Assembly (NCBI GenBank): GCA_040754335.1
Contig: JBFMCV010000002.1
Coordinates: 310,001 to 374,000, forward strand
Direction: 5' to 3'
Length of the DNA: 64,000 nucleotides
Source of the DNA: Thermodesulfobacteriota bacterium
Lineage (GTDB): Bacteria > Desulfobacterota_D > UBA1144 > Nemesobacterales > UBA2774
In this document: positions 3,701 to 24,204 of the stretch, one piece after another
Layout: every line of letters begins with the position of its first letter
Position numbering within the stretch: the first letter of the stretch is position 1
Position numbers and translations under genes: made by a program
The notes under the pieces: model-generated
The model's database searches: none
Told to the model about the DNA's origin: nothing
What the model saw: only the letters and a program-made list of their open reading frames with translations

Positions 3701-4253
3701 CTCGGCACGCGGACTTTAGCATGACTCACGGCGGAAGCGCCGCTGCATATCGCTTGCCTGCGTGCAAACTATAGCCGCATGGAATTCCGCGAGCCTCTCC
3801 GGATTCTTCACCCTTGTAATTTCAATAGGGATTAGTGTATAATGGGGACTTAAAGAGCCCGGGGGGACAAATCCAAAGTTCTAGTCTCGTTAAAGGAGGA
3901 TTTGATAAAAGAGGTATGGAGAGTCTCTTCCCCCCGGGCCCAAACTCGACTATTACGATAATAGTATAGCAGACTTTTTCCGGCTGTAATCATTTTTCCT
4001 TCTTCCCGCCCGGCGTTCTCATAAACCCCCTCGGCAATCCTTGCTTGTATATACGTCTTCGGGCGTCCATCCGGTTCTTGTCCCGCGTAAATATTAAATG
4101 TGTCCGTTGTAGTTTTATCTGACACAGTGCGGAAATATTTCACGCACCCTTAATAAAAAGAATCTAATATATATGGTGTATAGGGGGTGTTCGGGCGCTG
4201 GCACGGGATTTGCTCCCTTGATGAATAAATCCATAGGCAGGAGGCGATAAGCT
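3701..4253 (+). other. Intergenic region with long-loop GC-rich hairpin
   Basis: No convincing gene is seen in these 553 bases. A perfect 11-bp inverted repeat (GCCCGGGGGGA at 3857-3867 and its complement at 3929-3939) encloses a 61-base loop that contains an AAAGGAGGA ribosome-binding-like sequence at 3892-3900, but no properly spaced start codon follows. An AT-rich stretch at about 4153-4180 could hold the promoter of the following dehydrogenase gene. Confidence 0.5.
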
Positions 4254-5403: not shown

Positions 5404-5589
5404 CGAATTTGTTAATTCAGTAGTTGCATTTGCATGTCATAAATTACCATTGCAGCCTGCGGATATTGATGAGTTGACGAGAAGAACAGGTATTGGTTGT
5501 TAGCTGAATCGACCCTCCAAACCCGATCTGGACTCTCTTCCTCATCTTGAGCATATCTCAGACGCTTGAGACAATGGAGGAGAGATGGG

Positions 5590-8500: not shown

Positions 8501-10857
8501 TTTTTACCAGAGGCGGTGCCAACAACGTTATAAAAATAACCGACCCGAAAGGGAATATTACCGATATGAATTATGATCCTCGGCACAATCTTCGCTGGAG
8601 CATCAATCAGGCTATAGGGGCCAGGACCGATTTTACTTATACGAATGATGGGTTTAATCAAATTCAGACGATCAAGGACCCGAGGAATAACACGACTACT
8701 TTCAACTATAATTCCAGCGGTGATCTCACTTCGATAGTGGATGCATTGGGGCATCAGACCACCATGACGTATAATGCCCTGGGGCTTCAGACATCCGTCA
8801 CGGACGCACTTAACAATACTGTTTCTTTTGACTATGATCCTGCGACAATGAATCTCGTGGGCACTACGGATCAGCTCCTCCACGATACCATCTTTACACT
8901 CGATGCAGCGGGGAATATCACGTCAATGACGGATGCCGAGGGGAGGACTACTACATATTCTTATGATGCAATGAACAGATTGACACAGGTCGTCGATCCC
9001 GATTTGGCAGTGACGGTTTATGGTTATGACGACGCCGGTAATCTGGAAAGTGTTACAGACGCGAGATCGAAGACTACTACTTTCTCCTATGATCAGCGTG
9101 ACAGGCTCAGCGGAAGGACGGACCCGCTCGGGCATTCGGAATCGTTCACGTACGACGGAAACGGGAATACTGTATCGACAACGAACAGAAACGGTCAGAC
9201 AATCACATATGAATACGACGGGGCAAACGAGCTTATAAAGAAGACTCACCCTGGAGGTAATCTAACAACTTATACATACGACAACAACGGTAACATGCTT
9301 ACTGCAAATGATCCGGACAGCAAGCTTACGATGACATATGACGGAGCCGACAGGATGTTAACGGTTTCAACGGCAGGTTCATCGAACCAGCCGAGTAAAA
9401 CAATAACGAATACATATGACTTGAATGGTAATCGTACTAGCGCGGCACTTTCTACTCCCGCTGCGGGTAATTTTACATTTGTGTATGATGCTCTCAACAG
9501 GCTTACTTCGATGACTGAGCCGGGTACGAAGACATTTACTTTTAGTTATGACTCAATTGGGCGGAGAACGCAATTAGTATACGGAAACGGAGCAATAACG
9601 GACTACACTTATGATGCAAAGAACCAGCTTACGAATTTGATGAATACGTTCAATGCGAACGTGATATCAAGCTTTTCATATGGGTATGACGATGTCGGGA
9701 ACCGGACGGTTATGAACACGGTAAGAAGTGGTATAACCGTCAATAGCCCTTTGGATTACATTTATGATGACCTTTACCGTTTAGTCGATGCGACAAATCC
9801 GATTAATTCAACTCCTGAAACATTTGTATACGATGCTGTAGGTAACAGGCTGCGTAAAACAGGGCAGTTCACCGATTCCATCTTCGACAACGCCAACGCA
9901 CTTATTGAGGATGCGGATTATACTTATACGTATGACAATAACGGCAATATGATCGAGAAGGTAAATAAATCCACATTAGAGGTTGCACAATACACATATG
10001 ATGCTGAGAACAGGCTCACTCAGGTAACAAAGCCAGGTATGACTGCGAGTTACAGGTATGATGCCTTAGGTAGGAGAATAGAGAAGAATGTTAACGGAAC
10101 TGTTACGAGATTTATTTATGATGGAATAAATCTTCTTGAAGAATTTAACGGGAGCAACACTTACCAGGCACGAAATATACATGGACCCGGTGTGGATGAG
10201 ATGCTGTTACAGGGAAGGACGATTCGTCATTATTACCATACCGATGGTTTGGGAAGTACGACGGAGCTTGTAAGTTCGGGAGGGAATATACAAAATTCGT
10301 ATGTATACGACTCCTTTGGAAATATTGTTTCTCAAGCTGGCGTTGAGATAAATCCATTCACCTACACCGGCCGGGAATACGATGCGGAGAGCGGGCTGTA
10401 TTACTACCGCGCGAGATATTACGATCCGACGATTGGGAGGTTTTTGAGTGAGGACCCGATTGGGTTTGCTGGTGGCATCAATAAGTATGTATATGTTGGG
10501 AATAACCCAATAACTCTCACAGATCCTTATGGTTTGAATCCAGCTATAGCTTGTGCGCTAAATCCAGCATGTTCAACCTTTGTTTTTGAAGTATGCAAAG
10601 CCGTTGTTGTCGGAGCAGCTATTGCAATTGGTATTATAGCTACTTCAGATATTTGTGACGATGACGATAGCGATGGTGATCCAGATTGTGGAAATGATGA
10701 CGGATGTGACGAAGAGTGGGAAAGAGCTTTTGCTATATGTGAAAAAGAGGTCGCCAAACGTAGAAATCGAGGAATAACTGGCGGCTATACAAATATCTTT
10801 GATTGTGCAAGGGGATTAGTTAGCGAAAGATGTGGAGGTAATGCCGTAGTATACTAG
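5590..10857 (+). CDS. Large RHS/YD-repeat protein with LamG domain and variable C-terminus
   Basis: A 1755-residue predicted cell-surface protein. A hydrophobic N-terminal segment (about residues 12-32) is followed by a carboxypeptidase-regulatory-like beta domain (about 40-110), an extended beta region with a Cys-rich stretch (C-x2-C-C) near residue 300, a LamG/concanavalin-like domain (about 497-737, with motifs such as NGELI and DEVRVWN), and some 850 residues of RHS/YD repeats of the YDxxGRL type. The RHS core (GREYDAESGLYYYRARYYDP, about 1594-1613) ends in DPYGL; after it a 107-residue unique tail has a hydrophobic helix, an Asp-rich run and several cysteines. RHS proteins with swapped tails are often contact-dependent toxins, and the two small genes immediately behind fit cognate immunity. 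The start is the ATG at 5590 with GGAGG at 5576-5580. Base composition is more AT-rich than the flanks. Toxicity is inferred, not shown. Confidence 0.85.
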   Translation: MKNFAVKIKVFFGPAVLILSLFIILFWFTASPTESVDESSKELRFTVVKGRVLDAVAASEGSEIPIVGAEIHVFGAKGSTITDSNGYFELRRVPLERGMVINIDSSGADPAPDGSIYAGFRMFFSLQKLPVNNFERPFYLTRLDPESITTVNPLDTTIVESPSMGVTLTIKPGTAYTDDGELYTGIIGLGLVPADFPPYIPPDDPGKFLMVTIQPPGINFSEPAQITYPNVSGISPGSVVSILQPSLATGNFDEVGIGIVSDDGAFVETLEGGIMRSGSCSGFRPPNAVGGTPVQDPPPCPNCCPLPIGSCTSLASGNLSEEHNLVSYKSLNQERSLKFVYNSTTADPSPIVKEITDFSNASQLAPPVSISFNLKVNGVDKGTIYTDVDGLTGERKIVQALQFDGGNLTTGIYPIDATITTYPSPDITVQPKSIIKTGDLVINNLENSEFGSGWSIEGVSRLFPEGDGDVAITEGNGDWKYFKLRATTLNPPIAPGSQGIALNFDGIDDYNTFPANSGNLLKSLPLTIEAWVRPNQRYDSPAEHSNVFGNIAVSSSLGVVLERGHGIGANVYNRNSNIVITRRHGNSDTGPNNYLARDIITSPTLEPGFWYHIAVVYTSGNEKVYLNGELIRDTSYPQGNVTVGNNVFNMGRISHCCIVDPSSPQYYKGAIDEVRVWNVARTQQEIQSGMLTQLSGSESGLVYYSKIDEGQGQTIADATGGGNTGRLGTLTTVQSIDPAWITYDPYNRDTQGDYVVPVTEHSLLFKNPDGSYTRELKDGTEVHFNAQGLQTSVVDRNGNATNYEYDGQGKLISITDPVGLVTTLAYSGDKIASVTDPAGRTTTFEMDGSGNLTKITDPDGTFRLFSYDSNHRLTSQTSKRGFVTTYQYNFAGRNIGATRPDGSTVSMSPQWMVGLIDPATGLGTQGNPAPPVLPAEIMATSTDGNGKTTTTIFNNFGYILDTTDPLGRRTIFTRGGANNVIKITDPKGNITDMNYDPRHNLRWSINQAIGARTDFTYTNDGFNQIQTIKDPRNNTTTFNYNSSGDLTSIVDALGHQTTMTYNALGLQTSVTDALNNTVSFDYDPATMNLVGTTDQLLHDTIFTLDAAGNITSMTDAEGRTTTYSYDAMNRLTQVVDPDLAVTVYGYDDAGNLESVTDARSKTTTFSYDQRDRLSGRTDPLGHSESFTYDGNGNTVSTTNRNGQTITYEYDGANELIKKTHPGGNLTTYTYDNNGNMLTANDPDSKLTMTYDGADRMLTVSTAGSSNQPSKTITNTYDLNGNRTSAALSTPAAGNFTFVYDALNRLTSMTEPGTKTFTFSYDSIGRRTQLVYGNGAITDYTYDAKNQLTNLMNTFNANVISSFSYGYDDVGNRTVMNTVRSGITVNSPLDYIYDDLYRLVDATNPINSTPETFVYDAVGNRLRKTGQFTDSIFDNANALIEDADYTYTYDNNGNMIEKVNKSTLEVAQYTYDAENRLTQVTKPGMTASYRYDALGRRIEKNVNGTVTRFIYDGINLLEEFNGSNTYQARNIHGPGVDEMLLQGRTIRHYYHTDGLGSTTELVSSGGNIQNSYVYDSFGNIVSQAGVEINPFTYTGREYDAESGLYYYRARYYDPTIGRFLSEDPIGFAGGINKYVYVGNNPITLTDPYGLNPAIACALNPACSTFVFEVCKAVVVGAAIAIGIIATSDICDDDDSDGDPDCGNDDGCDEEWERAFAICEKEVAKRRNRGITGGYTNIFDCARGLVSERCGGNAVVY

Positions 10858-12629: not shown

Positions 12630-12758
12630 GCAGTATTGCCAGCCCCTACAGCTTATTTAACATCTAAACCCCCAATTACTCAACCATATTTTGACCGCGT
12701 GTCGATTTTCCTTGAAATTAAGTCCATATGATGAACAATTATAGGGAATTTCCAAGCC

Positions 12759-13709
12759 ATGTTTGAAGCAATCATTGTCATAATCGGTCTCTCGCTCTTC
12801 GAGATAATATCGAGCATAGACAACGCCGTCGTGAACGCGCACGTGCTCGCCACGATGACTGACCGGTTCAGACGGTTCTTCCTCATATGGGGCATGCTCA
12901 TAGCCGTGTTCCTGCTCAGGGGAGTGCTCCCGTTCCTCATAGTGTGGATCGCCAACCCCAACTTATCGTTCATCGAGCTTTTCGAATTCACTTTCTCGGG
13001 GGACAGCAAGCAGATAGAGAGCTCTCTCGCGGAGTCGAAAGCCTATCTCCTCGTGGGCGGCGGGATGTACCTCGTCCTCGTATTCCTCGCTTGGCTGTTT
13101 CTGGAGGAGAAGAAGTACACGTTCCTCGTAGAGCACTTCATACGCAGGCACTCGGTCTGGTTCTACGCCATAACTTCCATATTCTTCACGGCAATCGTAT
13201 ATATATCCCTCCAGTTCGACCCGTTCCTGGCGTTCGCCGCTTCGATCGGCACCACTGCCTTCTTCATAACCGACGGGTTCAAAAAGAACGCGGAGGAGAA
13301 AGAAAAGGAGCTCCTCGACCCCAACATGAGCGGGTGGAGCAAGGTCTTTTATCTGGAAGTGCTCGACGCCTCGTTCTCCATAGACGGCGTGATCGGGGCG
13401 TTCGCTTTCACGATGTCTGTGCCGCTCATATTGATCGGAAACGGCATAGGCGCGTTCGTCGTGAGGGAGGTTACAGTCCGCGGCATAAACTGGATATCGA
13501 AATACGCATACCTCAAGAACGGGGCGATGTACTCTATCGGCATGCTTGGCGCGATAATGATACTCGAGAGCTTCGGCGAGGAGATACCGTTCTGGATCGC
13601 GCCGCTTAACACGGTCCTTCTGCTCGCTATATTCCTCTTCCTCTCATGGCGCGAGATCAAGCTCGCAGAGAAGCTCGAAGCCGAGGGGAAGGGAGAGGGT
13701 GCAGTTTAA
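12759..13709 (+). CDS. DUF475 integral membrane protein (TerC superfamily)
   Basis: A 316-residue polytopic membrane protein with about eight hydrophobic segments. The segment SLFEIISSIDNAVVNA near the N-terminus and its counterpart FYLEVLDASFSIDGVIGAF in the second half are the paired acidic membrane motifs of the TerC/DUF475 family, which includes tellurite-resistance-like and metal-efflux proteins, some of them linked to manganese export. Length is normal for the family. The base composition returns to the high-GC style of the chromosome here, so the island boundary lies in 12630-12758. No metal-binding regulator is nearby, so the substrate is unknown. Confidence 0.85.
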   Translation: MFEAIIVIIGLSLFEIISSIDNAVVNAHVLATMTDRFRRFFLIWGMLIAVFLLRGVLPFLIVWIANPNLSFIELFEFTFSGDSKQIESSLAESKAYLLVGGGMYLVLVFLAWLFLEEKKYTFLVEHFIRRHSVWFYAITSIFFTAIVYISLQFDPFLAFAASIGTTAFFITDGFKKNAEEKEKELLDPNMSGWSKVFYLEVLDASFSIDGVIGAFAFTMSVPLILIGNGIGAFVVREVTVRGINWISKYAYLKNGAMYSIGMLGAIMILESFGEEIPFWIAPLNTVLLLAIFLFLSWREIKLAEKLEAEGKGEGAV

Positions 13710-13897
13710 ATTAACCGTCGCTCGCATTTCCCCCGGCCCTGTTTGATCCGCCGGACCAGCTTTTTGTATGTCACGGATATGCGGTATCACTCATAACTGT
13801 GCTTCTCACGGAGCATATTCCAAGTCTTCGGTTCCCCCCCCGGCGCTAACACCGGAGCATTGCGGACTGTATAATAATCTTCCTGCGGGGGTAGGCT

Positions 13898-15256
13898 ATG
13901 ACGGAAGTTAAAAGCGAGGCGTCTCATCTAAGCGTTCTCGTCGTCGACGACGAGGTGAATATAAGGAAGACCCTCACACTCTGCCTCGAATCGCGGGGCC
14001 ATGCCGTAACGGCGGTAAGCAACCCAGCCGACGCGGTGTCCGAAGCGGGGAGACGCGTATTCGACCTCGCTTTCGTCGACCTCAGGCTCGGGACTGAAAG
14101 CGGCCTCGACCTCATCCCTCAGCTCCTCGCCTCGTGTCCCTGGATCAAGATCGTGGTCGTCACGGCTTACGCTTCCATAGACACCGCGGTCGAAGCGATG
14201 AAGCGGGGCGCAGCCGATTACATACCCAAGCCGTTTACTCCCGAGCAGGTCGATATCGTGACGGAGCGCGCCGCGGCCGTGAGGGGCATGGAGCAGCGCA
14301 TAGAGGCGCTCGAGGAGGACATCAACAAGCTCCGCCCGGAGATATCGTTGGAATCGAGGCACCCCGCCATGCAGCGCGCACTCGAGCTTGCACGGAGGGC
14401 GGCGCCGAGCGACGCCGCGATTCTCATCAAAGGGCCGAGCGGTACGGGCAAGACGGTCCTCTCGCGCGCAATACACGGCTGGAGCAGGAGGGCGGACAAG
14501 CCGTTCGCCGTGATATCCTGCCCCTCGCTCAGCCCCGAGCTCCTGGAGAGCGAGCTCTTCGGTCACGTAAGGGGGGCGTTCACCGGGGCCGTATCGGATA
14601 ACCCCGGGAGGATCGCTGCCTCAGAAGGCGGGACGCTCTTTCTAGACGAGATAGGAGACCTGCCGCTCCAGCTTCAGCCGAAGCTTCTCCGCTTCCTTAA
14701 CGACAGGGAGTACGAGCGGGTGGGAGACCAGAAGACGCGGAGAGCGGACGTCAGAATAATATCCGCCACGAACACGGACCTCGAAAAAGCCGTAAAGGTG
14801 GGGAAGTTCCGCGAAGACCTCTTTTACAGGCTGAACGTAATTGAGATTACTCTCCCCTCGCTCTCCGAGCGCCCGGACGACCTTGAAGGGCTTGCCGCGA
14901 ACATGATCTCATTCTTCGGCGCCCAGAACCACAAGAGACTCCGGGGGTTCACGCCGGCGGCGATGACGGCTATCAGGAATTATTCCTGGCCCGGCAACAT
15001 AAGGGAGCTCAGGAACGTGATAGAGAGGGCTGCGATTATATGTCAGGGGGAGGTCGTGGGAGTGGAGAATCTGCCCGATTCCATCTCCCCGCGCAAGGCC
15101 CCTCCCGGACTCGGAGACCCCGTCCCCTTGAGCGTGATAGAGGAGAGCCACATACGCCGCGTAGTCGCCGAAACGAAGACCCTTCAGGAGGCCTCTGAGA
15201 TTCTCGGGATCGACCAGGCGACCTTATGGCGGAAGCGCAAGCAGTACGGCATCTGA
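13898..15256 (+). CDS. NtrC/AlgB-type sigma-54-dependent response regulator
   Basis: A 452-residue transcription activator with three domains in standard order. The receiver domain has the acidic pair DD (17-18), phospho-acceptor Asp61 (FVDLRLG) and conserved Thr/Lys (VVTAYAS; IPKPF). The AAA+ domain has Walker A GPSGTGKT (about 178-185), the sigma-54 contact loop GAFTGA (about 226-231), Walker B LFLDEIGD and an arginine-finger region. The C-terminal Fis-type helix-turn-helix is seen in EASEILGIDQATLWRKRKQYG. It contacts sigma-54 holoenzyme and opens the promoter. It lies directly upstream of a KinB-like kinase and the kdp genes, and a perfect sigma-54 promoter sits between it and the kinase, so it most likely controls that unit. 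No kdpE gene is present in the window. Confidence 0.92.
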   Translation: MTEVKSEASHLSVLVVDDEVNIRKTLTLCLESRGHAVTAVSNPADAVSEAGRRVFDLAFVDLRLGTESGLDLIPQLLASCPWIKIVVVTAYASIDTAVEAMKRGAADYIPKPFTPEQVDIVTERAAAVRGMEQRIEALEEDINKLRPEISLESRHPAMQRALELARRAAPSDAAILIKGPSGTGKTVLSRAIHGWSRRADKPFAVISCPSLSPELLESELFGHVRGAFTGAVSDNPGRIAASEGGTLFLDEIGDLPLQLQPKLLRFLNDREYERVGDQKTRRADVRIISATNTDLEKAVKVGKFREDLFYRLNVIEITLPSLSERPDDLEGLAANMISFFGAQNHKRLRGFTPAAMTAIRNYSWPGNIRELRNVIERAAIICQGEVVGVENLPDSISPRKAPPGLGDPVPLSVIEESHIRRVVAETKTLQEASEILGIDQATLWRKRKQYGI

Positions 15257-15282
15257 ACCGCCGGACGCGATTCCCTGCAGCC

Positions 15283-15295
15283 TTGCAAAATGCAA
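15283..15295. promoter_or_regulatory. Candidate upstream activating sequence for the NtrC-type regulator
   Basis: A perfect palindrome TTGCA-AAA-TGCAA lies about 100 bases upstream of the -12 element of the sigma-54 promoter, the usual distance for an enhancer site. Only one copy is seen, so the assignment is tentative. Confidence 0.4.
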
Positions 15296-15380
15296 TATAT
15301 ATTCTGCCCCCTCATTGAGAATTACAAGGGCGAGTAAACGCAACTGCCTGTTATTATTACATATTAATCATACAAATACC

Positions 15381-15397
15381 GGGCACGTATCTTGCAT
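15381..15397 (+). promoter_or_regulatory. Sigma-54 (-24/-12) promoter of the kinase-kdp operon
   Basis: The sequence GGGCACGTATCTTGCAT matches the -24/-12 consensus, with GG at 15382-15383 and GC at 15394-15395 exactly ten bases apart. Transcription would start near base 15407, about 10 bases ahead of the kinase ATG at 15418. An NtrC-type activator gene lies immediately upstream. Confidence 0.8.
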
Positions 15398-15417
15398 TTC
15401 TACTTTACCAATATCCT

Positions 15418-17286
15418 ATGATAGGCATACGTCAAAAACTAGCCCTCGGGTTCGGGGGCCTGCTGGCCATAGTCATCGTCATCGGTCTCCTCACCATGTC
15501 GCGCATTAAGGAGCTGGGCTATGCGATCGACGTGATTCTCAAAGAAAACTATCTGAGCGTCGTCGCCTGCCAGGACATGAAGGAGACGCTTGAGCGCATG
15601 GACAGCGGGATCCTTTTCACGCTTGCAGGCAACAACGAAGAGGGGCTGAAACTCATCGGCGAGAACACGGGAAAGTTCGGGTCGGCTCTCGAGTCCGAGC
15701 TCAACAACATAACCCTTCCGATGGAGGGGGAAAAAGCCCGTGAAATAGAAAAGCTCTTCGGGGAATATACCAAAAGCATACCGCTCGTAACTGACACGTC
15801 ACGTCCCTTTCAGGAACGAAACGAGGCGTACTTCTCGACGCTGCTGCCTCTGTTCCAGAAGATAAAATCACTCGCGCACGAAATACTGATAATGAACCAG
15901 AAGAGCATGAGCGACGCAAACGACGAGGCGAGAGCACTCGCCGCGTCCACGTACAGGCAGATGCTTACCGCCATGATAGCGTCGGCAGTGATAGCGGTCC
16001 TCTTCGGTTATCTCACCCACAGGTGGGTGCTCAGGCCGATCAACACGCTTATCGAATCTACCGGGGAGATACGCAGGGGGAACCTCGACGTCGTCATCGA
16101 ATCGGGCTCGCACGACGAGATAGGGAAGCTCTCGGAATCGTTCAACGAGATGACGGCGGCCCTCAGGCGGGTGAGGAAGAGCGAGAGGATGAACCTCATA
16201 CGTCTCAGGAGGGCGATGGAGGAGGTCGTTAAGGCCCTGCCTGACGCGATCGCAATTCTCGATACTGAAGGTCGGGTGGAGGTCTCGACGGATACCGCCC
16301 AGCGCATGTTCGGCCTGAAGCCGGGCGTGCTCGTAAAGGACCTCGGCTACGAATGGATGCCGGGTCTCATCGGCAAGGCGCTCGCCGAGGACAGGGTCGT
16401 GGACCTGGATTCAAAGAACGGATACGTGCAGCGCTTCTCCGAAGGCCGCGAGTATTTCTTCAGGCCCATCGCCGTGCCCATTCCGGTCAAGCCCAAGTCG
16501 GGCGAGCATACGGGCTCCGCGATAATACTCAATGACGTTACTCAGATCCACGAGCAGGCGGAGCTGAAGCGGGACGTCGTCTCTACGGTTTCCCATCAGT
16601 TGAGGACGCCGCTTACTTCGCTCCGCATGTCGATACATCTTCTGCTGGAGGAGAAAGTAGGCGGTCTCAACGAGCAGCAGGCTGAGCTCCTCGTGGCTGC
16701 AAGGGAGGACAGCGAGAAGCTCGTGAGCATTCTGAGCGGACTGCTCGATCTCAACAGAATGGAGTCGGGCAAGACGAACATCGATATCGGGAGCTATTCG
16801 CCGCATACGCTCGCGAGGGAGGGGATAGAGCCCTTCCACATCGAGGCCAGGGACAAGGGCGTCACTGTCATAAACGCAGTGCCGGAAGACCTCCCCGAGG
16901 TGCAGGCCGATCTGTTCAGGATACGCCATGTGTTCGCCAACCTTATTTCCAACTCGTTGAGGTTCACAATGCCCGGCGGCGTGATCATAGTCAGGGCGGA
17001 GCAAGAAGGGCGCTTTATCCGTTTCTCTGTCGAGGATACGGGGGAAGGGATTCCGCCCGAACACCTGCCGAGGATATTCGATCAGTTCTACCGCGTGCCC
17101 GGCCAGGACGAGAAATCCGGGGTGGGTCTCGGTCTCGCGATAGTGAAGGAGATAGTGGAGGCGCACGGAGGAGCGGTCGGCGTGAAAAGCGAGGCGGGGA
17201 GGGGATCCTCGTTCGAGTTCACGCTGCCCCTGGAACAACGATCTACTGAAATTCACGGTCACGAAATACGCAGTAAGAATGCGTGA
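15418..17286 (+). CDS. KinB-like membrane sensor histidine kinase
   Basis: A 622-residue inner-membrane kinase. Transmembrane helix 1 spans about residues 8-26, a periplasmic helical sensor domain about 27-175, helix 2 about 178-198, then HAMP (about 199-255), a PAS domain (about 270-370), HisKA with the phospho-acceptor His in TVSHQLRTPL (about residue 394) and HATPase_c with the N box NLISNSLRFT, G1 box EDTGEGIP and G2 box GVGLGLAI. The order and length match KinB, the partner of AlgB, and the upstream regulator is AlgB-like. The start has no ribosome-binding site because the predicted sigma-54 transcript begins only about 10 bases ahead. It is followed after 14 bases by the kdp genes, suggesting that it senses potassium limitation, osmotic or envelope state. 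Confidence 0.88.
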   Translation: MIGIRQKLALGFGGLLAIVIVIGLLTMSRIKELGYAIDVILKENYLSVVACQDMKETLERMDSGILFTLAGNNEEGLKLIGENTGKFGSALESELNNITLPMEGEKAREIEKLFGEYTKSIPLVTDTSRPFQERNEAYFSTLLPLFQKIKSLAHEILIMNQKSMSDANDEARALAASTYRQMLTAMIASAVIAVLFGYLTHRWVLRPINTLIESTGEIRRGNLDVVIESGSHDEIGKLSESFNEMTAALRRVRKSERMNLIRLRRAMEEVVKALPDAIAILDTEGRVEVSTDTAQRMFGLKPGVLVKDLGYEWMPGLIGKALAEDRVVDLDSKNGYVQRFSEGREYFFRPIAVPIPVKPKSGEHTGSAIILNDVTQIHEQAELKRDVVSTVSHQLRTPLTSLRMSIHLLLEEKVGGLNEQQAELLVAAREDSEKLVSILSGLLDLNRMESGKTNIDIGSYSPHTLAREGIEPFHIEARDKGVTVINAVPEDLPEVQADLFRIRHVFANLISNSLRFTMPGGVIIVRAEQEGRFIRFSVEDTGEGIPPEHLPRIFDQFYRVPGQDEKSGVGLGLAIVKEIVEAHGGAVGVKSEAGRGSSFEFTLPLEQRSTEIHGHEIRSKNA

Positions 17287-17300
17287 GGAGGCATAAGGAA

Positions 17301-17384
17301 ATGCTTACGTTTATAATGCTGGCTCTCGGCCTGGGGGTCTTTATACTGCTCGGGGCCATCACGATTTTGCTCGAAAAAATATAG
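17301..17384 (+). CDS. 27-residue single-span membrane peptide upstream of kdpF
   Basis: This short frame encodes one hydrophobic helix (MLTFIMLALGLGVFILLGA...) ending in a charged tail, LLEKI. An AGGAG stretch at 17286-17291 and an AAGGA just before the ATG give possible ribosome binding. It is fitted without wasted space between the kinase stop and kdpF: its stop codon overlaps the TAGGAGG ribosome-binding site of kdpF. Its size and location resemble KdpF-type accessory subunits, but it lacks the KdpF tail. It may be a second small stabilising subunit; function unknown. Confidence 0.6.
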   Translation: MLTFIMLALGLGVFILLGAITILLEKI

Positions 17385-17393
17385 GAGGCTCAA

Positions 17394-17474
17394 ATGCTCT
17401 GGATTGCGACTTTAGTCCTGATTTTCTGTTTCATATATCTGGTGTACGCGATTATTAAACCCGAGCGTTTCTAG
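17394..17474 (+). CDS. kdpF: KdpF, small accessory subunit of the potassium ATPase
   Basis: A 26-residue membrane peptide with one helix and the typical KdpF ending YLVYAIIKPERF. KdpF binds the KdpABC complex in the inner membrane and stabilises it. It has its own AGGAGG site (17384-17389) and is followed 12 bases later by kdpA, whose ribosome-binding site AGAGGAGA overlaps the end of this gene. Confidence 0.85.
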   Translation: MLWIATLVLIFCFIYLVYAIIKPERF

Positions 17475-17486
17475 AGGAGAGTAAAA

Positions 17487-19169
17487 ATGTCATTTCTTTT
17501 TATAACGATAATTATAGCTATACCTGTCCTCCTTTCATGGCCTGTCGGGAAGGCCATGAAGTGGGCGATGGACCCTGCTGAGCCCGAGAAAAAATTCAGG
17601 GGCCGTTTCACGAAGCTGTTCCGCGGCGTCTCAGGAGGACTCATCGAAAAGGAGCAGGACTGGAAGGCGTACTCGCTCTCCTTGCTCCTGTTCAATGCAG
17701 TGATGTTCCTGGTCGTATTCGCGATCATGGCGGCACAGCAATACCTCCCCCTCAACCCGGACGCAAAGGAGGCGATCGAGCCGAGCCTCATATTCAACAC
17801 GACGGCCTCGTTCACGTCGAACACGAACCTCCAGCACTATTCGGGCGAGGTTTCGCTGAGCTATTTTTCCCAGCTCTTCGCTCTCATGTGGCTCCAGTTC
17901 GTCTCGGCCGCGACCGGCATAGCGGCGCTTACGGCGCTTTCGAGGGGACTTGCGGGTAAGCCCGGGCTCGGGAACTTCTACCGCGACCTGCTTAACGCCA
18001 CTTTGTTAGTTCTTCTGCCGATCGCTGCGGTCGTCGCCGTACTCCTTGTATTGGGAGGCGTGCCCATGACATTCAACGGCGCTGCAACTGCGGAAACGCT
18101 CGAAGGCGTCGTGCAGACTATAGCGAGGGGGCCTGTCGCGGCGTTCGTCACTATAAAGCAGCTCGGGACGAACGGCGGAGGGTTCTTCGGTCCCAACTCC
18201 ACGCACCCCTTCGAGAACCCGACATTTTTCACTAACATTGTCGAGTGCGTGAGCATACTGCTCATTCCAATGGCGTCCGTCTGGATGTTCGGCAGGATAA
18301 CGAAGAGGATGCGCCATGCGGCGGTGATCTTCACGGTCATGGCTGCGATCCTTATAAGCACCGTCGGCCTCGCCGTCTATTTCGAGAGCGCTCCTACTCA
18401 GGCCTTTACGGGCCTTCCGGTCGAGAGCTCCATGAACCTAGAGGGAAAGGAGATGCGCTTCGGCACGTCGGCGGGTCCGCTCTGGGCGACCTTCACCACG
18501 GCCACGAGCAACGGCTCCGTCGATGCGATGCACGACAGCCTGAACCCGCTCACGGGTCTTGTACCGCTCACGGGCATGTGGCTCAACGTGACGTTCGGCG
18601 GCGTGGGCGTGGGGTTTATCAACATGTTCATATATATAATCGTCGGCGTTTTCATAAGCGGCATGATGGTGGGGAGGACGCCCGAGTATTTAACGAAGAA
18701 GGTAGAGACGAAGGAAATGAAGCTCGCGCTTCTCGCCCTCTTGGTACATCCGCTGTTCATTCTCGGAGGCACTGCCCTTTTCGCCATGACAGCGTGGGGC
18801 GCGTCCACCGTTCTTAACCCCGGAGCGCACGGCTTCTCCGAGATTTTGTACGAGTTCAGCTCTGCAGCCGCTAACAACGGCTCGGGTTTCGAGGGGCTCG
18901 GGGACAACACCGTGCCCTGGAACGTCGCGACAGGGCTCGTCATGCTCTTGGCCCGCTATATACCGATAATACTTCCGCTCGCGATCGCAGGTTCGCTTGC
19001 GCTGAAGAAACCGGCGCCCGAGACTTCGGGCACGCTCCGGACCGATTCAGCGCTTTTCGGTTTCGTGATCCTCGGGACTGTGGTGCTGATCGGCGCGCTC
19101 CTGTTCATGCCGGTCGCGGTGCTCGGCCCTATAAACGAGTACGTAACTACTGCAGGGATGTATAAGTAA
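17487..19169 (+). CDS. kdpA: KdpA, potassium-binding channel subunit
   Basis: A 560-residue polytopic membrane protein of the SKT superfamily, close to the usual 557 residues. KdpA binds and translocates potassium for the high-affinity KdpFABC pump. Four selectivity-filter-like segments are expected; clear ones are [19 protein letters not shown]-like sequence at about residues 229-247, [12 protein letters not shown] near 112, and [11 protein letters not shown] near 464. It follows kdpF with short spacing and precedes kdpB by 41 bases, as in standard kdp operons. Confidence 0.97.
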
Positions 19170-19210
19170 ATCGTGGGATACCTTACAGCGTTAAGAGAGG
19201 AACTAAAAAC

Positions 19211-21286
19211 ATGACAGACATACAGAAAGTACATGAACTCGCGAAGCTCGAGAGGAGGAAGGTAAGGAGAGCTTCTCTCTTCGAAAGAGAGCTCGTCGAG
19301 GCCGCGGTGAAAAAGTCTTTTTCGATGTTGAACCCCGTAACCATAGCGCGCAATCCGGTTATGTTCGTTACCGAGATAGGGGCGGCCGTGTCCACGCTCG
19401 TCCTCGCATTAAATATCTATCAGAAGAGCGGGGCCGTTGTTTATACGCTTTGGGTGACGCTCATCCTCTGGATAACGGTGCTCTTCGCCAACTTCGCCGA
19501 GGCTCTTGCCGAAGCGAGGGGGAAGGCCCAGGCCGATACCCTCAGAAAGACAAGACGGAAGACAATGGCTCATAGGATGGTTAACGGAGGCATGGAAGAA
19601 GTGAGCTCGAACGAGCTCAGGGAAGGGGACGTCGTGTACGTCTCGGCCGGCGTGATAATCCCGAACGACGGGGAGATCGTAGAGGGCGTCGCCACGGTCG
19701 ACGAGTCCGCGATCACGGGCGAATCCGCTCCCGTGGTCAGGGAAGCGGGTGGCGACCGCTCGGGTGTCACGGGCGGAACCCGCGTCCTCTCCGATTCCAT
19801 AAAGGTTCAGATCACGGCCGGCGCCGGCGAATCGTTCCTCGACCGCATGATAGCTCTCGTAGAGGGCGCAATAAGGCAGAAGACGCCCAACGAGCTCGCG
19901 CTCACTGTGACCCTTGCCGGGCTGACCCTCGCGTTCCTCATGGTGACCGGCGCGCTCTATCCCATAGGCAAATACTTCGGCGTCGAGATACCGATCCCGA
20001 CGCTGGTCGCGCTCCTGGTGTGTCTTATCCCGACCACTATCGGCGCTCTGCTCGCAGCGATCGGGCTTGCGGGTATGGACCGGGCGCTTTCGGCGAATGT
20101 GTTAGCCAAGAGCGGGAAGGCGGTCGAGCTCGCGGGAGACGTGGATACGCTTCTTCTCGATAAAACCGGAACTATAACGATCGGCGACCGCCAGGCGACT
20201 GAATATTTCCCGCTGCCGGACGTTACCCGCGATAGACTTGCCGCGGCAGCCATGTACGCCTCGTTCGGGGACCTTACCCCTGAAGGAAAGTCTATCGTGA
20301 AGCTCGGCGCGGATACTCTGGGCGGCGCGGCTCCGAGAGAGGCAACGGGCGAGGTTATACCTTTCACCGCCCAGTCGCGCCTCAGCGGTCTCGATACAAC
20401 TGGCGGACGCAGGCTGAGGAAAGGGGCGCCTGACGCGATAAAGGCTTTCGTGACCCAGTCCGGCGGCTCGGTCCCCGAATCATATCAGGGAATAGTGGAC
20501 GGCATAGCTAAGGACGGAAGCACGCCCATATCCGTCGCCGAGGGGAAAGAGATACTGGGAGTCATTTCGCTCTCGGACGTGCTCAAGCCGGGGATAAGGG
20601 ACCGTATCACGAGACTCCGCGCCATGGGTCTACGCGTCGTCATGGTGACGGGCGATAACCCGCTCACAGCGGCGGCGATAGCCCGCGAGGCGGGCGTGGA
20701 CGACTTCATCGCCGAGGCCAAACCGGAGGACAAGCTCGAATACATACGGCGTGAGCAGCGCTCGGGCAGGCTCGTCGCCATGATGGGGGACGGGACCAAC
20801 GACGCCCCTGCCCTCGCGCAGGCGGACATCGGCGTCGCCATGAACTCGGGCACGCAGGCGGCGAAGGAAGCGGGCAACATGGTCGACCTCGACAGCGACC
20901 CGACGAAGCTCATCGAGGTGATAGAGATAGGGAAGCAGCTATTGATCACGAGGGGGGCGATAACCACTTTCTCCATCGCAAACGACGTGGCTAAATATTT
21001 CGCCATCATCCCCGCCATATTCTTACTCGCCATACCGGGGCTAGAAGCGCTCAATATAATGGGTCTCAGCACACCCGAGAGCGCTATACTGTCTGCGCTG
21101 ATATTTAACGCGGTCATTATACCGATACTTATACCGCTCGCTATAAAGGGGGTTAAGTACAGGCCGACGGGGGCTGAGATTCTACTGAGAAAAAACCTGC
21201 TCGTGTACGGACTCGGAGGGGTTATAGTGCCCTTCGTCGGTATCAAATTAATCGATACGGCCCTCGGTGTAACGGGGCTCTTTTAG
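19211..21286 (+). CDS. kdpB: KdpB, P-type ATPase subunit
   Basis: A 691-residue P-type ATPase that supplies energy for potassium uptake. Visible motifs are the A-domain TGES (about 164-167), the phosphorylation motif DKTGT with the acceptor Asp near residue 316, KGAPD in the N domain and the hinge [10 protein letters not shown] near residue 527. The SNK-type ion path helix with Pro-Thr-Thr-Ile-Gly is present. Its length is normal. A good ribosome-binding site, GAGAGGAAC, precedes the ATG. Confidence 0.98.
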
Positions 21287-21297
21287 GAGGCGCTATT

Positions 21298-21885
21298 ATG
21301 AAAGACAATAAAGAAAATATGGGGATAGGCATGCAGCTCGTCACCTCGGTGAGGGTCGTGGTCTTCACGATGATCGTCTGCTGCGGCCTTTACACGCTTC
21401 TCATTTTTGGAATCGGCCAGGCAGTCACTCCGTATACGGCCGATGGCTCGCTCATAACCGATGCCCAGGGCAAAGTGATCGGAAGCGAGCTCATAGCCCA
21501 GAAATTCACGCGCCCCGAGTACTTCTGGCCGAGGCCTTCGGCGTCTGATTACAACGCCGCGGGGACTGCGGGGAGCAACCTCTCCCCGGCTAACCCCAAG
21601 CTCCGCGATAGGGCGCTTGAGATAATCGGCACTATGGGGACTGCTGAGGCCGACCCCGTTCCAGCCGACCTCGTCACGGCTTCAGGCGGCGGGCTCGATC
21701 CGCATATCACATTGGAAGCCGCAAGGTATCAGGCGAAGAGGGTTGCGGATGCGCGCGGGCTCCCGGAGGAGCAAATAACGGGCCTCATCGAAAACCATGC
21801 CTTAAAAACAGGAGGGATGCTTACTCCCGAACCGCTTGTGAACGTGCTACTCTTGAATATAGAGCTCGATAAAACAGTCGAATAA
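21298..21885 (+). CDS. kdpC: KdpC, periplasmic-facing subunit of the potassium ATPase
   Basis: A 195-residue protein with one N-terminal membrane helix (about 15-37) and a soluble domain. The conserved KdpC blocks are present: FTRPEYFWPRPSA, NLSPANP, the Asp-Pro-His segment (LDPHIT) and a closing LNVLLLN. KdpC stabilises the complex and raises its affinity for potassium. It starts 11 bases after kdpB with an AGGAGG site inside the end of kdpB. Confidence 0.97.
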   Translation: MKDNKENMGIGMQLVTSVRVVVFTMIVCCGLYTLLIFGIGQAVTPYTADGSLITDAQGKVIGSELIAQKFTRPEYFWPRPSASDYNAAGTAGSNLSPANPKLRDRALEIIGTMGTAEADPVPADLVTASGGGLDPHITLEAARYQAKRVADARGLPEEQITGLIENHALKTGGMLTPEPLVNVLLLNIELDKTVE

Positions 21886-21925
21886 CAGATTACCGGGAGG
21901 AGAAGATTATGGGAGGGTCGATCGG

Positions 21926-23578
21926 ATGAACGGCAGCCGCGCAGACAGCTTCCTCCGGATGATCCGCAGGTCTCAGCGCGGGAGGCTGAAGATCTACGTC
22001 GGCTACTCGGCCGGCGTGGGCAAGACGTACGAGATGCTGCTCGAAGGCCGCCGCCTGAAGCAGGACGGCATAGACGTCGTCGTCGGGCTTGTCGAGACGC
22101 ACGGTAGGAAGGAGACCGAGGCGCTCGTCGAGGGCCTCGAGGTCATACCCAGGAAAAATGTGACATACAGGGGGATAGAGATCGGGGAAATGGACTTGGA
22201 CGCGATACTCGAGCGCCGTCCCGAGGTCGTGCTCGTCGACGAGCTCGCGCATACTAATGTCCCCGGGAGCAGGAACGCGAAGCGGTACCAGGACGTCGAG
22301 GAGATTCTTTCTGCCGGGATCCACGTCATATCCACTCTCAACGTGCAGCACCTGGAGAGCCTCTACGAGACTATAGAGCGCGCGACAGGGGTGAAGGTCA
22401 GGGAGCGGATACCCGACCGCGTCGTCGCGGAAGCGGACCAGCTCGTTAACGTGGACGTCACGACCGAGGACCTCCGCCAGCGTCTCGTCGAGGGGAAGGT
22501 CTACACGAAGGAGAGCGTCGACGCCGCGCTCGAGCATTTCTTCAAGGAGACGAACCTCGAGCAGCTCCGCGAGCTCACGCTGCGCGAGCTCGCCGCGCAG
22601 ATAGATTCCCGTAGGCGGGAGGCTCTCGACGAGGAAACGCCCTCGAGCCCCGACCAGGTGATGGTCTGCCTGAGCTCTAGGGGGCCCAACAGCGAAGCGC
22701 TTCTGCGCTACACGTCCCGGCTCGCGGGGCGTCTCAACAGGAACTGGTACGCGCTCTACGTGCAGACCTCAGGCGAGAAACCGACTGTGATAGACGCGGA
22801 GACCCAGAGGATACTCTCCAACACTCTTGCGCTCGCGCAGCAGCTGGGCGCGACCGTGTTCACGTACAGGGGCGACGACGTCGTGAAAACCATACTACAG
22901 TTCGCTAAGGAATACAGGGTCGGGCACATAGTCGTAGGCTCGACGAGGGGGAAATACCCCTATTGGAGGAGGCTCGCCGGACAGAAGAGCATCGTCGAGA
23001 GGCTCATAACCGAGAGCGAAGGGATAACCATAGTCGTCCTCGATACGAGCTCTCTGCTTGAAGACGGGACGTACAGGCCTCCCGCACGCGAGCCTGCCGC
23101 AGTAGAGGAAGAGGCACCGCCCGTCAAGCCCGAGTCTCTCTTGGCCGGGATGAAGGTCGTCTTGTGGAAGGATCAGGTGGATAAGGAAAAAGCGATGAAA
23201 GTGCTCCTCGAGACGCTCTGCCGGGATTTCCCCGAGATCAGGGAATCCGCGTGGACGGCCCTCATGGAGCGCGAGAAGCAGGGCGGCACGTTCGCGGGAG
23301 AGGATATACTCATGCCTCACGCCCGTATCCCGGGGTTAGGGCGCTCGCTGCTCGCGCTCGGCGTGGGCAAGGGGGGGATAAAGGACAGGGATTCGGGACG
23401 GGTGGCGAAGATTATGTTCCTCATGCTCTCGCCCGCCGAGGAGCCCGCGGGCCACGTCGAGCTTCTGGGGATGATCGCGAAGATGTGCCAGGAGTCCAGG
23501 TGGATGAAGGACGTGCTCGCCTCGGAAAGCCCCGAGGAGATAAGGCGTATCATCGAGGCGCACGAGAGCGCGGAGTGA
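21926..23578 (+). CDS. Kinase-less KdpD: KdpD sensor + universal stress + PTS EIIA domains
   Basis: A 550-residue soluble protein. Residues about 20-230 are the KdpD N-terminal domain, with Walker A GYSAGVGKT (about 27-35), a Walker B-like VLVDELAHTN and the STLNVQHLE block. Residues about 245-375 form a universal-stress (UspA) domain with a G-S-T-R-G nucleotide-binding segment. Instead of the DUF4118 membrane region, GAF and histidine kinase of full KdpD, the C-terminus (about 395-545) is a PTS EIIA type 2 domain, with active-site His465 in ILMPHARIPG. The gene closes the kdp operon, 40 bases after kdpC. In E. coli, EIIA(Ntr) binds KdpD and alters its activity; here the partners appear joined in one chain. 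Probable role: cytoplasmic potassium or phosphotransfer signal input to the pump or to the KinB-like kinase. Confidence 0.85.
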   Translation: MNGSRADSFLRMIRRSQRGRLKIYVGYSAGVGKTYEMLLEGRRLKQDGIDVVVGLVETHGRKETEALVEGLEVIPRKNVTYRGIEIGEMDLDAILERRPEVVLVDELAHTNVPGSRNAKRYQDVEEILSAGIHVISTLNVQHLESLYETIERATGVKVRERIPDRVVAEADQLVNVDVTTEDLRQRLVEGKVYTKESVDAALEHFFKETNLEQLRELTLRELAAQIDSRRREALDEETPSSPDQVMVCLSSRGPNSEALLRYTSRLAGRLNRNWYALYVQTSGEKPTVIDAETQRILSNTLALAQQLGATVFTYRGDDVVKTILQFAKEYRVGHIVVGSTRGKYPYWRRLAGQKSIVERLITESEGITIVVLDTSSLLEDGTYRPPAREPAAVEEEAPPVKPESLLAGMKVVLWKDQVDKEKAMKVLLETLCRDFPEIRESAWTALMEREKQGGTFAGEDILMPHARIPGLGRSLLALGVGKGGIKDRDSGRVAKIMFLMLSPAEEPAGHVELLGMIAKMCQESRWMKDVLASESPEEIRRIIEAHESAE

Positions 23579-23691
23579 TTTGGTATGCGGTATTGAACGG
23601 GATTCGCCATGCCATCTGATATAAATACCGGTCTTTCTGACCGGAAGCGCGATAAATTTTCGGCTCAGCCGCGCCTACAAAACTTGAAACG

Positions 23692-23719
23692 TTGATTTTG
23701 CGGACAGGGTCATTATAAT
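23692..23719 (+). promoter_or_regulatory. Possible promoter of the tRNA-Lys/tRNA-Leu pair
   Basis: TTGATT (23692-23697) and a perfect TATAAT (23714-23719) are separated by 16 bases, about 97 bases upstream of tRNA-Lys. Sequence match only. Confidence 0.4.
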
Positions 23720-23815
23720 AAACCCTTTCTTTATGTTGCAGACAGTCGGGCCGGTTGCCGGCCACTCCAAATTTATACCGATTTAAGGTATTCTAAGTAC
23801 GCGTAATAGTCGTGT

Positions 23816-23892
23816 GGGCTGTTAGCTCAGTTTGGCAGAGCAGATGACTCTTAATCATCGGGTCGTGGGTTCGATTCCCTCACAGCCCACCA
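23816..23892 (+). tRNA. tRNA-Lys (anticodon CTT)
   Basis: A complete cloverleaf can be folded. The acceptor GGGCTGT (23816-23822) pairs with ACAGCCC (23882-23888). The anticodon stem GATGA/TCATC encloses CTCTTAA, giving anticodon CTT. The T arm GTGGG-TTCGATT-CCCTC is normal apart from a wobble pair, and CCA is encoded at 23890-23892. Confidence 0.95.
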
Positions 23893-23895
23893 CAT

Positions 23896-23977
23896 GCGAG
23901 AGTGGCGGAACTGGCAGACGCGCAGGACTTAGGATCCTGTACCTAACCGTGTGGGGGTTCGACTCCCCCCTCTCGCA
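23896..23977 (+). tRNA. tRNA-Leu (anticodon TAG)
   Basis: The acceptor GCGAGAG (23896-23902) pairs with CTCTCGC (23970-23976). The anticodon stem CAGGA/TCCTG encloses CTTAGGA, so the anticodon is TAG. The variable region is long, as in class II tRNAs, and the T arm is GGGGG-TTCGACT-CCCCC. CCA is not encoded. The 3' part from base 23925, starting in the anticodon stem, is duplicated exactly at 25299. Confidence 0.93.
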
Positions 23978-24204
23978 CATTCCACTTTTACAATTTCATA
24001 TAAGGCGACAGTGTAACGATACTTGCGATAAAATCCTGAGGTCAGTGCTAGACCGGATTCCAGAGCTTATACGTACGGCTGCACTGATTGTTCTTGGCAC
24101 TGAGCTGAGTGATCTCTGCGTCCGGCTAGTGGCAGCGGGTCGGATGTCATTCCGGGACGCTGTACGAGAGGCGAAGTGCGAAGGCGAGGAAGTGAGGACG
24201 GTGC
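23925..24204 (+). repeat. Duplicated segment, copy 1, overlapping the tRNA-Leu 3' half
   Basis: Bases 23925-24024 (100 bp) are identical to 25299-25398, and 24114-24204 (91 bp) are identical to 25485-25575. The middle part (24025-24113 against 25399-25484) is similar but diverged. The first identical block begins in the tRNA-Leu anticodon stem and runs through its 3' end plus 47 flanking bases, as expected for an attachment site used by a tRNA-targeting integrase. A hairpin-capable stretch lies at 24118-24160. One frame through the segment encodes a helical peptide with mainly synonymous differences in the middle part of the two copies. Confidence 0.85.

What the first reader, a model, noticed from the sequence alone, without database searches (positions are those of the whole stretch)
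13898..23578. kdp potassium-pump genes apparently placed under sigma-54 control by an AlgB/KinB-like pair
Seen: an NtrC-type activator gene, a palindrome at 15283, a canonical GG-N10-GC promoter at 15381-15397, a KinB-like kinase, then kdpF-A-B-C and a truncated KdpD without kinase, all in one direction with short spacing. No kdpE or KdpD kinase module is present. Known: the classical Kdp system uses KdpD/KdpE and sigma-70. Inference: potassium uptake here is switched on by a sigma-54 activator with a membrane sensor unrelated to KdpD.
Basis: partly seen in the sequence, partly recalled or inferred. Interest (0 to 1): 0.75.

Follow-up and report, generated by a model that had tools for sequence, protein, structure and literature searches.

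The report
Sigma-54 kdp operon with KdpD–EIIA fusion
A bacterium's emergency potassium pump appears to be switched on by an unusual transcription system already known from a sulfate-reducing bacterium, while its likely 'off switch' protein carries an extra metabolic-sensing domain for which our searches found no description.

Summary
An NtrC-type response regulator, one palindromic and one imperfect box, a sigma-54 promoter (15381-15396), a histidine kinase, a small peptide, kdpF-A-B-C and a kinase-less KdpD follow one another on one strand. In related loci, good sigma-54 motifs lie upstream of the kinase or kdp genes in 20 of 39 loci of the short-KdpD clade (1.1 expected) and 0 of 25 of the other, mostly full-length, clade. 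In several relatives the boxes keep a spacing of about 92 and 60 bp. Sigma-54 control is very likely, but not new as a kind: Desulfovibrio vulgaris DVU3334 was mapped to its own kdp operon in 2011. It keeps the domain shown elsewhere to be a serine kinase that inactivates KdpB, then Usp, then a C-terminal EIIA-Ntr domain whose histidine is invariant in 15 of 15 aligned proteins, window included. The genome encodes EI, HPr and three diadenylate cyclases. Best reading: the two-component pair switches kdp on; the KdpD-Usp-EIIA protein switches the pump off and ties it to phosphotransferase status. The first half is well supported by comparison; the second rests on homology, and the role of EIIA is inferred.

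The parts
13846..13875 (+). sigma-70-like promoter candidate for the regulator gene (CTAACA-18-TATAAT)
   Evidence: 10 of 12 consensus match; 5 such sites found in the region against 3.5 expected, so weak
13898..15256 (+). NtrC-type response regulator, 452 aa: receiver, sigma-54 AAA+ domain with GAFTGA at residue 226, Fis-type HTH (just under cut-off)
15283..15295 (+). box 1, palindrome TTGCAAAATGCAA, centre 92 bp upstream of the promoter
   Evidence: spacing conserved in several relatives
15315..15327 (+). box 2, imperfect TTGAGAATTACAA, centre 60 bp upstream of the promoter
   Evidence: 7 of 10 positions; weak on its own, noted because relatives have a box at this spacing
15381..15396 (+). 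sigma-54 promoter GGGCACGTATCTTGCA (GG-N10-GC)
15418..17286 (+). histidine kinase, 622 aa: predicted helical-bundle sensor, HAMP, PAS-like, HisKA (His393), HATPase_c
   Evidence: 4HB_MCP and PAS below Pfam cut-offs
17301..17384 (+). 27-codon ORF for a one-helix membrane peptide, unnamed
   Evidence: no NCBIfam match
17394..17474 (+). kdpF, 26 aa
   Evidence: TIGR02115 over cut-off
17487..19169 (+). kdpA
19211..21286 (+). kdpB; TGES serine is residue 172, aligned with the TGES of the solved Kdp pump 6hra chain B
21298..21885 (+). kdpC
21926..23578 (+). KdpD without histidine kinase, 550 aa: KdpD domain (Walker A G26-T34, Walker B D105 E106), Usp, C-terminal EIIA-Ntr domain (His465)
   Evidence: the Usp match is under Pfam's cut-off (21.3 against 24) but supported by fold

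Best explanation
This is a kdp potassium-uptake operon with separate 'on' and 'off' arms. On: the membrane kinase phosphorylates the NtrC-type regulator, which binds TTGCA-N3-TGCAA-like boxes and activates sigma-54 polymerase at 15381-15396, transcribing kinase, small peptide, kdpFABC and kdpD. Off: the KdpD N-terminal domain acts as the atypical serine kinase that phosphorylates the KdpB TGES serine, gated by its Usp domain and by the fused EIIA-Ntr domain, whose histidine is phosphorylated through EI and HPr. Shown here: anatomy, conserved promoter and box layout, conserved catalytic residues. Taken from the literature: serine-kinase activity of KdpD and the DVU3334 precedent. Inferred: low potassium as signal, co-transcription, and that EIIA gates the serine kinase rather than the histidine kinase.
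For: Sigma-54 motif of at least 10/12 upstream of HK or kdpA in 20 of 39 testable loci of the short-KdpD clade, window included, against 1.13 expected and 1 on the other strand, and in 0 of 25 testable loci of the other clade (0.50 expected); Fisher 4e-6. Where kdp precedes KdpD and HK (L038, L039, L043, L045, L047, L049) the motif lies 196-412 bp before kdpA instead. In L010, where kdp and HK diverge, both sides have a motif (kdp side 10/12, shuffle p 0.04), and the kdp side has boxes at 92 and 61 bp. Boxes near 92 and 60 bp recur in L008, L014, L015, L017 and L018. A same-family genome has a regulator 69% identical, box TTGCAATATGCAA 60 bp before TGGCACGGCGTATGCA, and a very similar kinase start. 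rpoN present. Collinear RR-HK-A-B-C-D in 12 of 80 fetched loci (many loci are cut short). KdpD: KdpD_non_kinase is the best NCBIfam match, below cut-off; Walker A and B residues and His465 invariant in 15 of 15; matches to KdpD NTD 2r8r, c-di-AMP-bound KdpD Usp 7ji4 and PtsN 1a6j/3urr. EI over cut-off twice and HPr once, PtsN-like gene near rpoN, three diadenylate cyclases. Literature passages.
Against: 19 of 39 short-KdpD loci show no motif at the threshold, including three Chlorobiaceae with the same gene order (L012, L013, L016). The 10/12 threshold was set; Fisher's test ignores kinship; in the other clade mostly only the kdpA side could be scored. Boxes are not at 92/60 in L020, L022, L029, L030 or on the HK side of L010. 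The genome-wide core count is barely above its control. Sigma-70-like sites on the + strand at 13846 and 16963, and three + strand terminator-like sites inside the operon (17321, 17844, 21262), all at chance frequency, mean an internal start or stop is not excluded. The KdpD model is poor in the N-terminal domain (mean pLDDT 64.4; residues 153-242 under 50). The adenine-coordinating W39 of E. coli KdpD (paper; its place just after GKT is recalled) is Tyr35 here, as also in the solved KdpD 2r8r. No expression, binding or kinase data exist here for this organism.
Confidence: 0.72

Rival explanations
1. The KdpD-Usp-EIIA protein serves transcription: it binds the separate kinase as a soluble sensor subunit (a split KdpD), and EIIA modulates that kinase as PtsN modulates full-length KdpD.
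For: The D. vulgaris authors read DVU3335/DVU3336 as a histidine kinase split in two. Unphosphorylated PtsN binds KdpD and raises kdp expression in several bacteria. HK and KdpD lie side by side also where kdpABC is not in the same run: L022 and L024 (no kdpABC match on the piece), L023 and L026 (kdp matches on the other strand).
Against: The serine-kinase motifs and the KdpB target serine are both kept, and a short KdpD from Deinococcus geothermalis phosphorylates KdpB (passage). The kinase has its own predicted sensor and a HAMP domain. Not exclusive of the best explanation.
Confidence: 0.35
2. kdp is driven by a sigma-70 start, for example within the kinase gene, and the sigma-54 promoter only feeds the kinase.
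For: A 9 of 12 sigma-70-like site at 16963-16991, and a weak terminator-like hairpin at 17321-17339 inside the 27-codon ORF.
Against: Both kinds of site are at chance frequency (5 found against 3.5 expected; 8 against 7.8). Gaps after the kinase are 9-41 bp. In other layouts the sigma-54 motif lies 196-412 bp before kdpA itself (L010, L038, L039, L043, L045, L047, L049).
Confidence: 0.1
3. The EIIA domain is a passive relic without phosphotransfer, and KdpD works as in Deinococcus, under c-di-AMP alone.
For: 3 of 19 members of the same KdpD clade lack EIIA (L018, L021, L022), so it is dispensable; in L009 the frame breaks within it. Three diadenylate cyclases are present.
Against: Pro464, His465 and Arg467 are invariant in 15 of 15 fusions, identity to the window down to 53%, and the genome has EI and HPr.
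Confidence: 0.25

Closest known systems
Desulfovibrio vulgaris DVU3334-3339 kdp operon
   Same: Sigma-54 response regulator (GAFTGA) targeting its own kdp operon, separate histidine kinase, KdpD-like protein with K+-sensor and UspA domains (passages).
   Different: The passages read name no EIIA domain on DVU3336.
Short KdpD atypical serine kinase (Deinococcus geothermalis KdpD; PMC11018627)
   Same: KdpD domain plus Usp without histidine kinase; in several species the serine-kinase chain is encoded after the pump while a separate two-component system controls kdp (passages).
   Different: No occurrence of EIIA, PTS, IIANtr or sigma in the main text (term search).
PtsN (EIIA-Ntr) control of KdpD in E. 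coli, rhizobia, Pseudomonas putida
   Same: EIIA-Ntr with a conserved phosphorylatable histidine acting on KdpD (passages).
   Different: There EIIA is a separate protein acting on a histidine-kinase KdpD; here it is fused to a KdpD without one.
Classical KdpDE system
   Same: KdpFABC pump and KdpD sensor domain.
   Different: No KdpD histidine kinase and no recognised KdpE; a sigma-54 promoter.

Membership tests
Sigma-54-dependent kdp regulation of the DVU3334 kind | NtrC-type regulator with sigma-54-contacting GAFTGA motif | tested here: met
Sigma-54-dependent kdp regulation of the DVU3334 kind | Sigma-54 promoter and activator boxes upstream of the kdp transcription unit | tested here: met
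   sequence level only:
Sigma-54-dependent kdp regulation of the DVU3334 kind | Same DNA motif as DVU3334 | not testable with these tools
Sigma-54-dependent kdp regulation of the DVU3334 kind | Regulator binds and activates the promoter | not testable with these tools
   needs DNA binding and transcription assays
Classical KdpDE | KdpD histidine kinase module | tested here: not met
   no HisKA/HATPase in 21926-23578; single PF02702 match in genome
Classical KdpDE | KdpE response regulator | tested here: not met
   two OmpR-type regulators in a 98% complete genome, neither in the window's operon; judged not KdpE by eye
Short KdpD serine kinase | G-X5-GKT Walker A and D/E Walker B | tested here: met
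   G26, G30-V31-G32-K33-T34, D105 and E106 invariant in 15 of 15
Short KdpD serine kinase | Target serine in KdpB TGES loop | tested here: met
   Ser172 here; TGES in 55 of 66 loci with a KdpB match, window included; 9 without a pattern match and 2 with the first match elsewhere, not inspected
Short KdpD serine kinase | Adenine-coordinating W39/R190 of E. coli KdpD | tested here: inconclusive
   position after GKT is Tyr35 here and Tyr in 2r8r; residue mapping is recalled and R190 was not mapped
Short KdpD serine kinase | Phosphorylates KdpB | not testable with these tools
   needs protein assay
NCBIfam NF038185 KdpD_non_kinase | Score over curated cut-off | tested here: not met
   372.3 bits against 550, although best match
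EIIA-Ntr (PtsN) | EIIA type-2 fold with phosphorylatable His | tested here: met
   PF00359 over cut-off; 1a6j and 3urr matches; His465 invariant. TIGR01419 PtsN cut-off not reached (44.4 against 138.7)
AlgB/KinB | Closest relationship to AlgB and KinB | not tested
   no AlgB or KinB sequence compared; best profiles AtoC/NtrC and WalK/PnpS, none over cut-off

The most novel reading that the evidence does not exclude
A family of kdp operons in several phyla has fused the pump's serine-kinase off switch to an EIIA-Ntr domain, so that the phosphotransferase relay (PEP/nitrogen status) directly sets the activity of the potassium pump by controlling KdpB phosphorylation, independently of the sigma-54 on switch.
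Probability: 0.4. Interest if true: 0.62.

Novelty: new variant of a known kind. Interest (0 to 1): 0.48.

Why it matters
PtsN-dependent potassium control has given discrepant mechanistic models (review passage). A natural fusion of EIIA to a KdpD that has no histidine kinase would make a clean test possible: any effect of EIIA must pass through the serine kinase or through another partner. It also shows how potassium uptake can be wired to sigma-54 instead of KdpE in a whole clade of KdpDs, with a promoter and box layout that can be tested in laboratory strains.

Tried and rejected
A riboswitch before kdp: none found; only two tRNAs reached Rfam gathering scores in 12700-24100. A plasmid-borne copy of the fusion: 0 of 436 matching plasmid records cover 80% of the query. 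kdpE elsewhere in the genome: not recognised. Exact palindromes in L006, L008 and L011: absent; only imperfect boxes at the same spacing. Planctomycete loci L023, L024, L026, L031, L036: no sigma-54 motif at the threshold before HK. Paper searches for an EIIA-KdpD fusion and term searches in PMC11018627 and PMC13104625 gave no description of such a fusion; I saw listings and passages only, and most subscription papers are not in the library. Randomised controls: keep single-base content only; resample from first-order transitions, which is not an exact dinucleotide shuffle.
Full report
What is there. The window is contig C2:310001-374000 of a 3.26 Mb, 98.12% complete genome. The nearest named relative by KdpD is a Candidatus Dadabacteria MAG, 70% identical (L005). 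Of the 57 genomes searched in the window's own phylum, only G000 and G038 gave a match over the KdpD part of the query; the other matches listed cover only the EIIA part. All operon genes lie on the + strand: RR 13898-15256, HK 15418-17286, a 27-codon ORF 17301-17384, kdpF 17394-17474, kdpA 17487-19169, kdpB 19211-21286, kdpC 21298-21885, kdpD 21926-23578. Domains are by Pfam and NCBIfam.

The promoter. The 161-bp RR-HK gap holds GGGCACGTATCTTGCA at 15381-15396. Alone it is modest: the 15-base core occurs 7 times in the genome against 4 for the reversed pattern, and twice in the window without mismatch. I therefore used relatives. With the 80 loci fetched by the KdpD protein and the window, I scored the best GG-N10-GC site within 450 bp upstream of HK and of kdpA. 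I split them by a quick tree of the KdpD N-terminal and Usp part, in which a branch with SH-aLRT 100 parts 47 rows with the window (KdpD of 364-573 aa as measured) from 34 rows, 25 of which are 867-951 aa and nine 418-752 aa. I call these the short clade and the other, mostly full-length, clade. Of 39 testable short-clade loci, 20 reach at least 10 of 12 consensus positions (1.13 expected, 1 on the other strand); of 25 testable loci of the other clade, none (0.50 expected). The threshold was set, kinship is ignored by the Fisher value of 4e-6, and the other clade was scored mostly on the kdpA side alone. 8 of 47 and 9 of 34 rows could not be scored because no suitable gene start or too little upstream sequence was on the locus.

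Location follows layout. Where RR-HK precede kdp, the site lies before HK; in L038, L039, L043, L045, L047 and L049, where kdp precedes KdpD and HK, it lies 196-412 bp before kdpA. In L010, where kdpABC and HK-KdpD diverge, there is a site on each side (kdp side 10/12, p 0.04), and the kdp side carries TTGCATGATGCAA and TTGCTTATTGCAA at 92 and 61 bp; its HK side has boxes at 158 and 126 bp instead. This suggests that kdp itself, not only the kinase, is the target.

The boxes. TTGCAAAATGCAA at 15283 is 92 bp (centre) upstream of the promoter; TTGAGAATTACAA at 15315, a weak match, is at 60. Boxes at 89-93 and 58-61 recur in L008, L014, L015, L017, L018 and the kdp side of L010; L006 and L011 keep a box at 92-94 imperfectly; L020, L022, L029 and L030 differ in spacing or quality. 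The same-family genome G038 (59% complete) has a regulator 69% identical, TTGCAATATGCAA 60 bp before TGGCACGGCGTATGCA, and a very similar kinase start. Three Ignavibacteria loci instead show TTTCATTTTGAAA-like boxes at about 58 and 78.

The pair. Of 80 loci, 27 hold a long match to the regulator, all 27 with a kinase match of at least 150 bits (adjacent in most; 5-8 kb apart in six), and 12 are collinear RR-HK-A-B-C-D. The predicted kinase sensor is a long helical bundle (residues about 41-170, block pLDDT 83-92); Pfam's 4HB_MCP match is under its cut-off. Nothing here shows what it senses.

The KdpD. It is 550 aa: KdpD domain, Usp (Pfam match just under cut-off), and PTS_EIIA_2 at 415-544. 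PDB relatives by sequence are KdpD NTD 2r8r and PtsN 1a6j, 2a0j, 3urr, 4gqx; by fold also 7ji4, the c-di-AMP-bound Usp of KdpD, though the N-terminal part of the model is poor. In an alignment of 15 fusions (L009 left out because its frame breaks in the EIIA part), the Walker A and B residues, Pro464, His465 and Arg467 are invariant. EIIA is present in 16 of 19 rows of the window's KdpD clade, L009 included; the label needs 3 changes on the tree. Since the query carried EIIA, its frequency is overestimated. Rows come from records titled Desulfobacterales, Chlorobiaceae, Lentisphaeria, Aminicenantes, Verrucomicrobia and others, nearly all MAGs, so single placements may be mis-binned.

Mechanism. 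PMC11018627 (passages) reports that the KdpD N-terminal domain is an atypical serine kinase that phosphorylates KdpB Ser162, that a short KdpD-Usp protein keeps this and responds to c-di-AMP, and that kinase-less versions make up almost 90% of KdpDs in species without KdpE. The window keeps the Walker motifs and the KdpB serine (Ser172) and the genome encodes three diadenylate cyclases. PtsN acts on KdpD elsewhere (passages of PMC9239096 and PMC13104625). Here EI, HPr and a separate PtsN-like gene near rpoN exist, so His465 has a plausible phosphate donor. What EIIA does in the fusion is inference.

Known versus new. Sigma-54 control of kdp by an operon-encoded regulator is known: PMC3333781 (passages) mapped DVU3334 to its own kdp operon and names orthologues only in D. 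vulgaris Miyazaki and Syntrophobacter fumaroxidans; PMC4641369 lists it among sigma-54 regulators (passages). Possibly new, as far as the listings and passages show: the EIIA-Ntr fusion, and the spread and recurring geometry of promoter and boxes beyond sulfate reducers. I rate it a new variant of a known kind.

Noticed in passing
window 17301-17384: A 27-codon ORF for a one-helix peptide just before kdpF. By eye, similar peptides occur before kdpF/kdpA in 31 of 55 loci scanned, window included, of both KdpD clades. No NCBIfam match. It may be an overlooked Kdp subunit or regulator; the listing of one paper search showed no description of it.
   Followed up: partly
L018:2981-5519: In a Desulfobulbaceae locus a 720-aa ORF with leucine-rich repeats and a GTPase-like P-loop (by eye) lies between HK and kdpF, and its KdpD lacks EIIA.
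   Followed up: no
L045, L047, L049 (Ignavibacteria): TTTCATTTTGAAA-like boxes at about 58 and 78 bp before the sigma-54 motif upstream of kdpA, suggesting a changed DNA specificity of the regulator.
   Followed up: partly
L012, L013, L016 (Chlorobiaceae): Same gene order but no sigma-54 motif at the threshold before HK, although the related L011 has TGGCACGTTATTTGCC there.
   Followed up: no
window 4200-4214: A second exact GGCACGNNNNTTGCW match in the window.
   Followed up: no
window 5566-10857: A 1763-aa ORF with RHS/YD-repeat-like sequence (by eye).
   Followed up: no
window 12759-13709: DUF475/TerC-family membrane protein gene just upstream of the regulator.
   Followed up: no
window 15397-15417: The sigma-54 site lies only 23-31 bp from the kinase start in the window and seven relatives (starts of relatives by alignment), so the leader would be very short; no clear ribosome-binding site is seen by eye in the window.
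   Followed up: no
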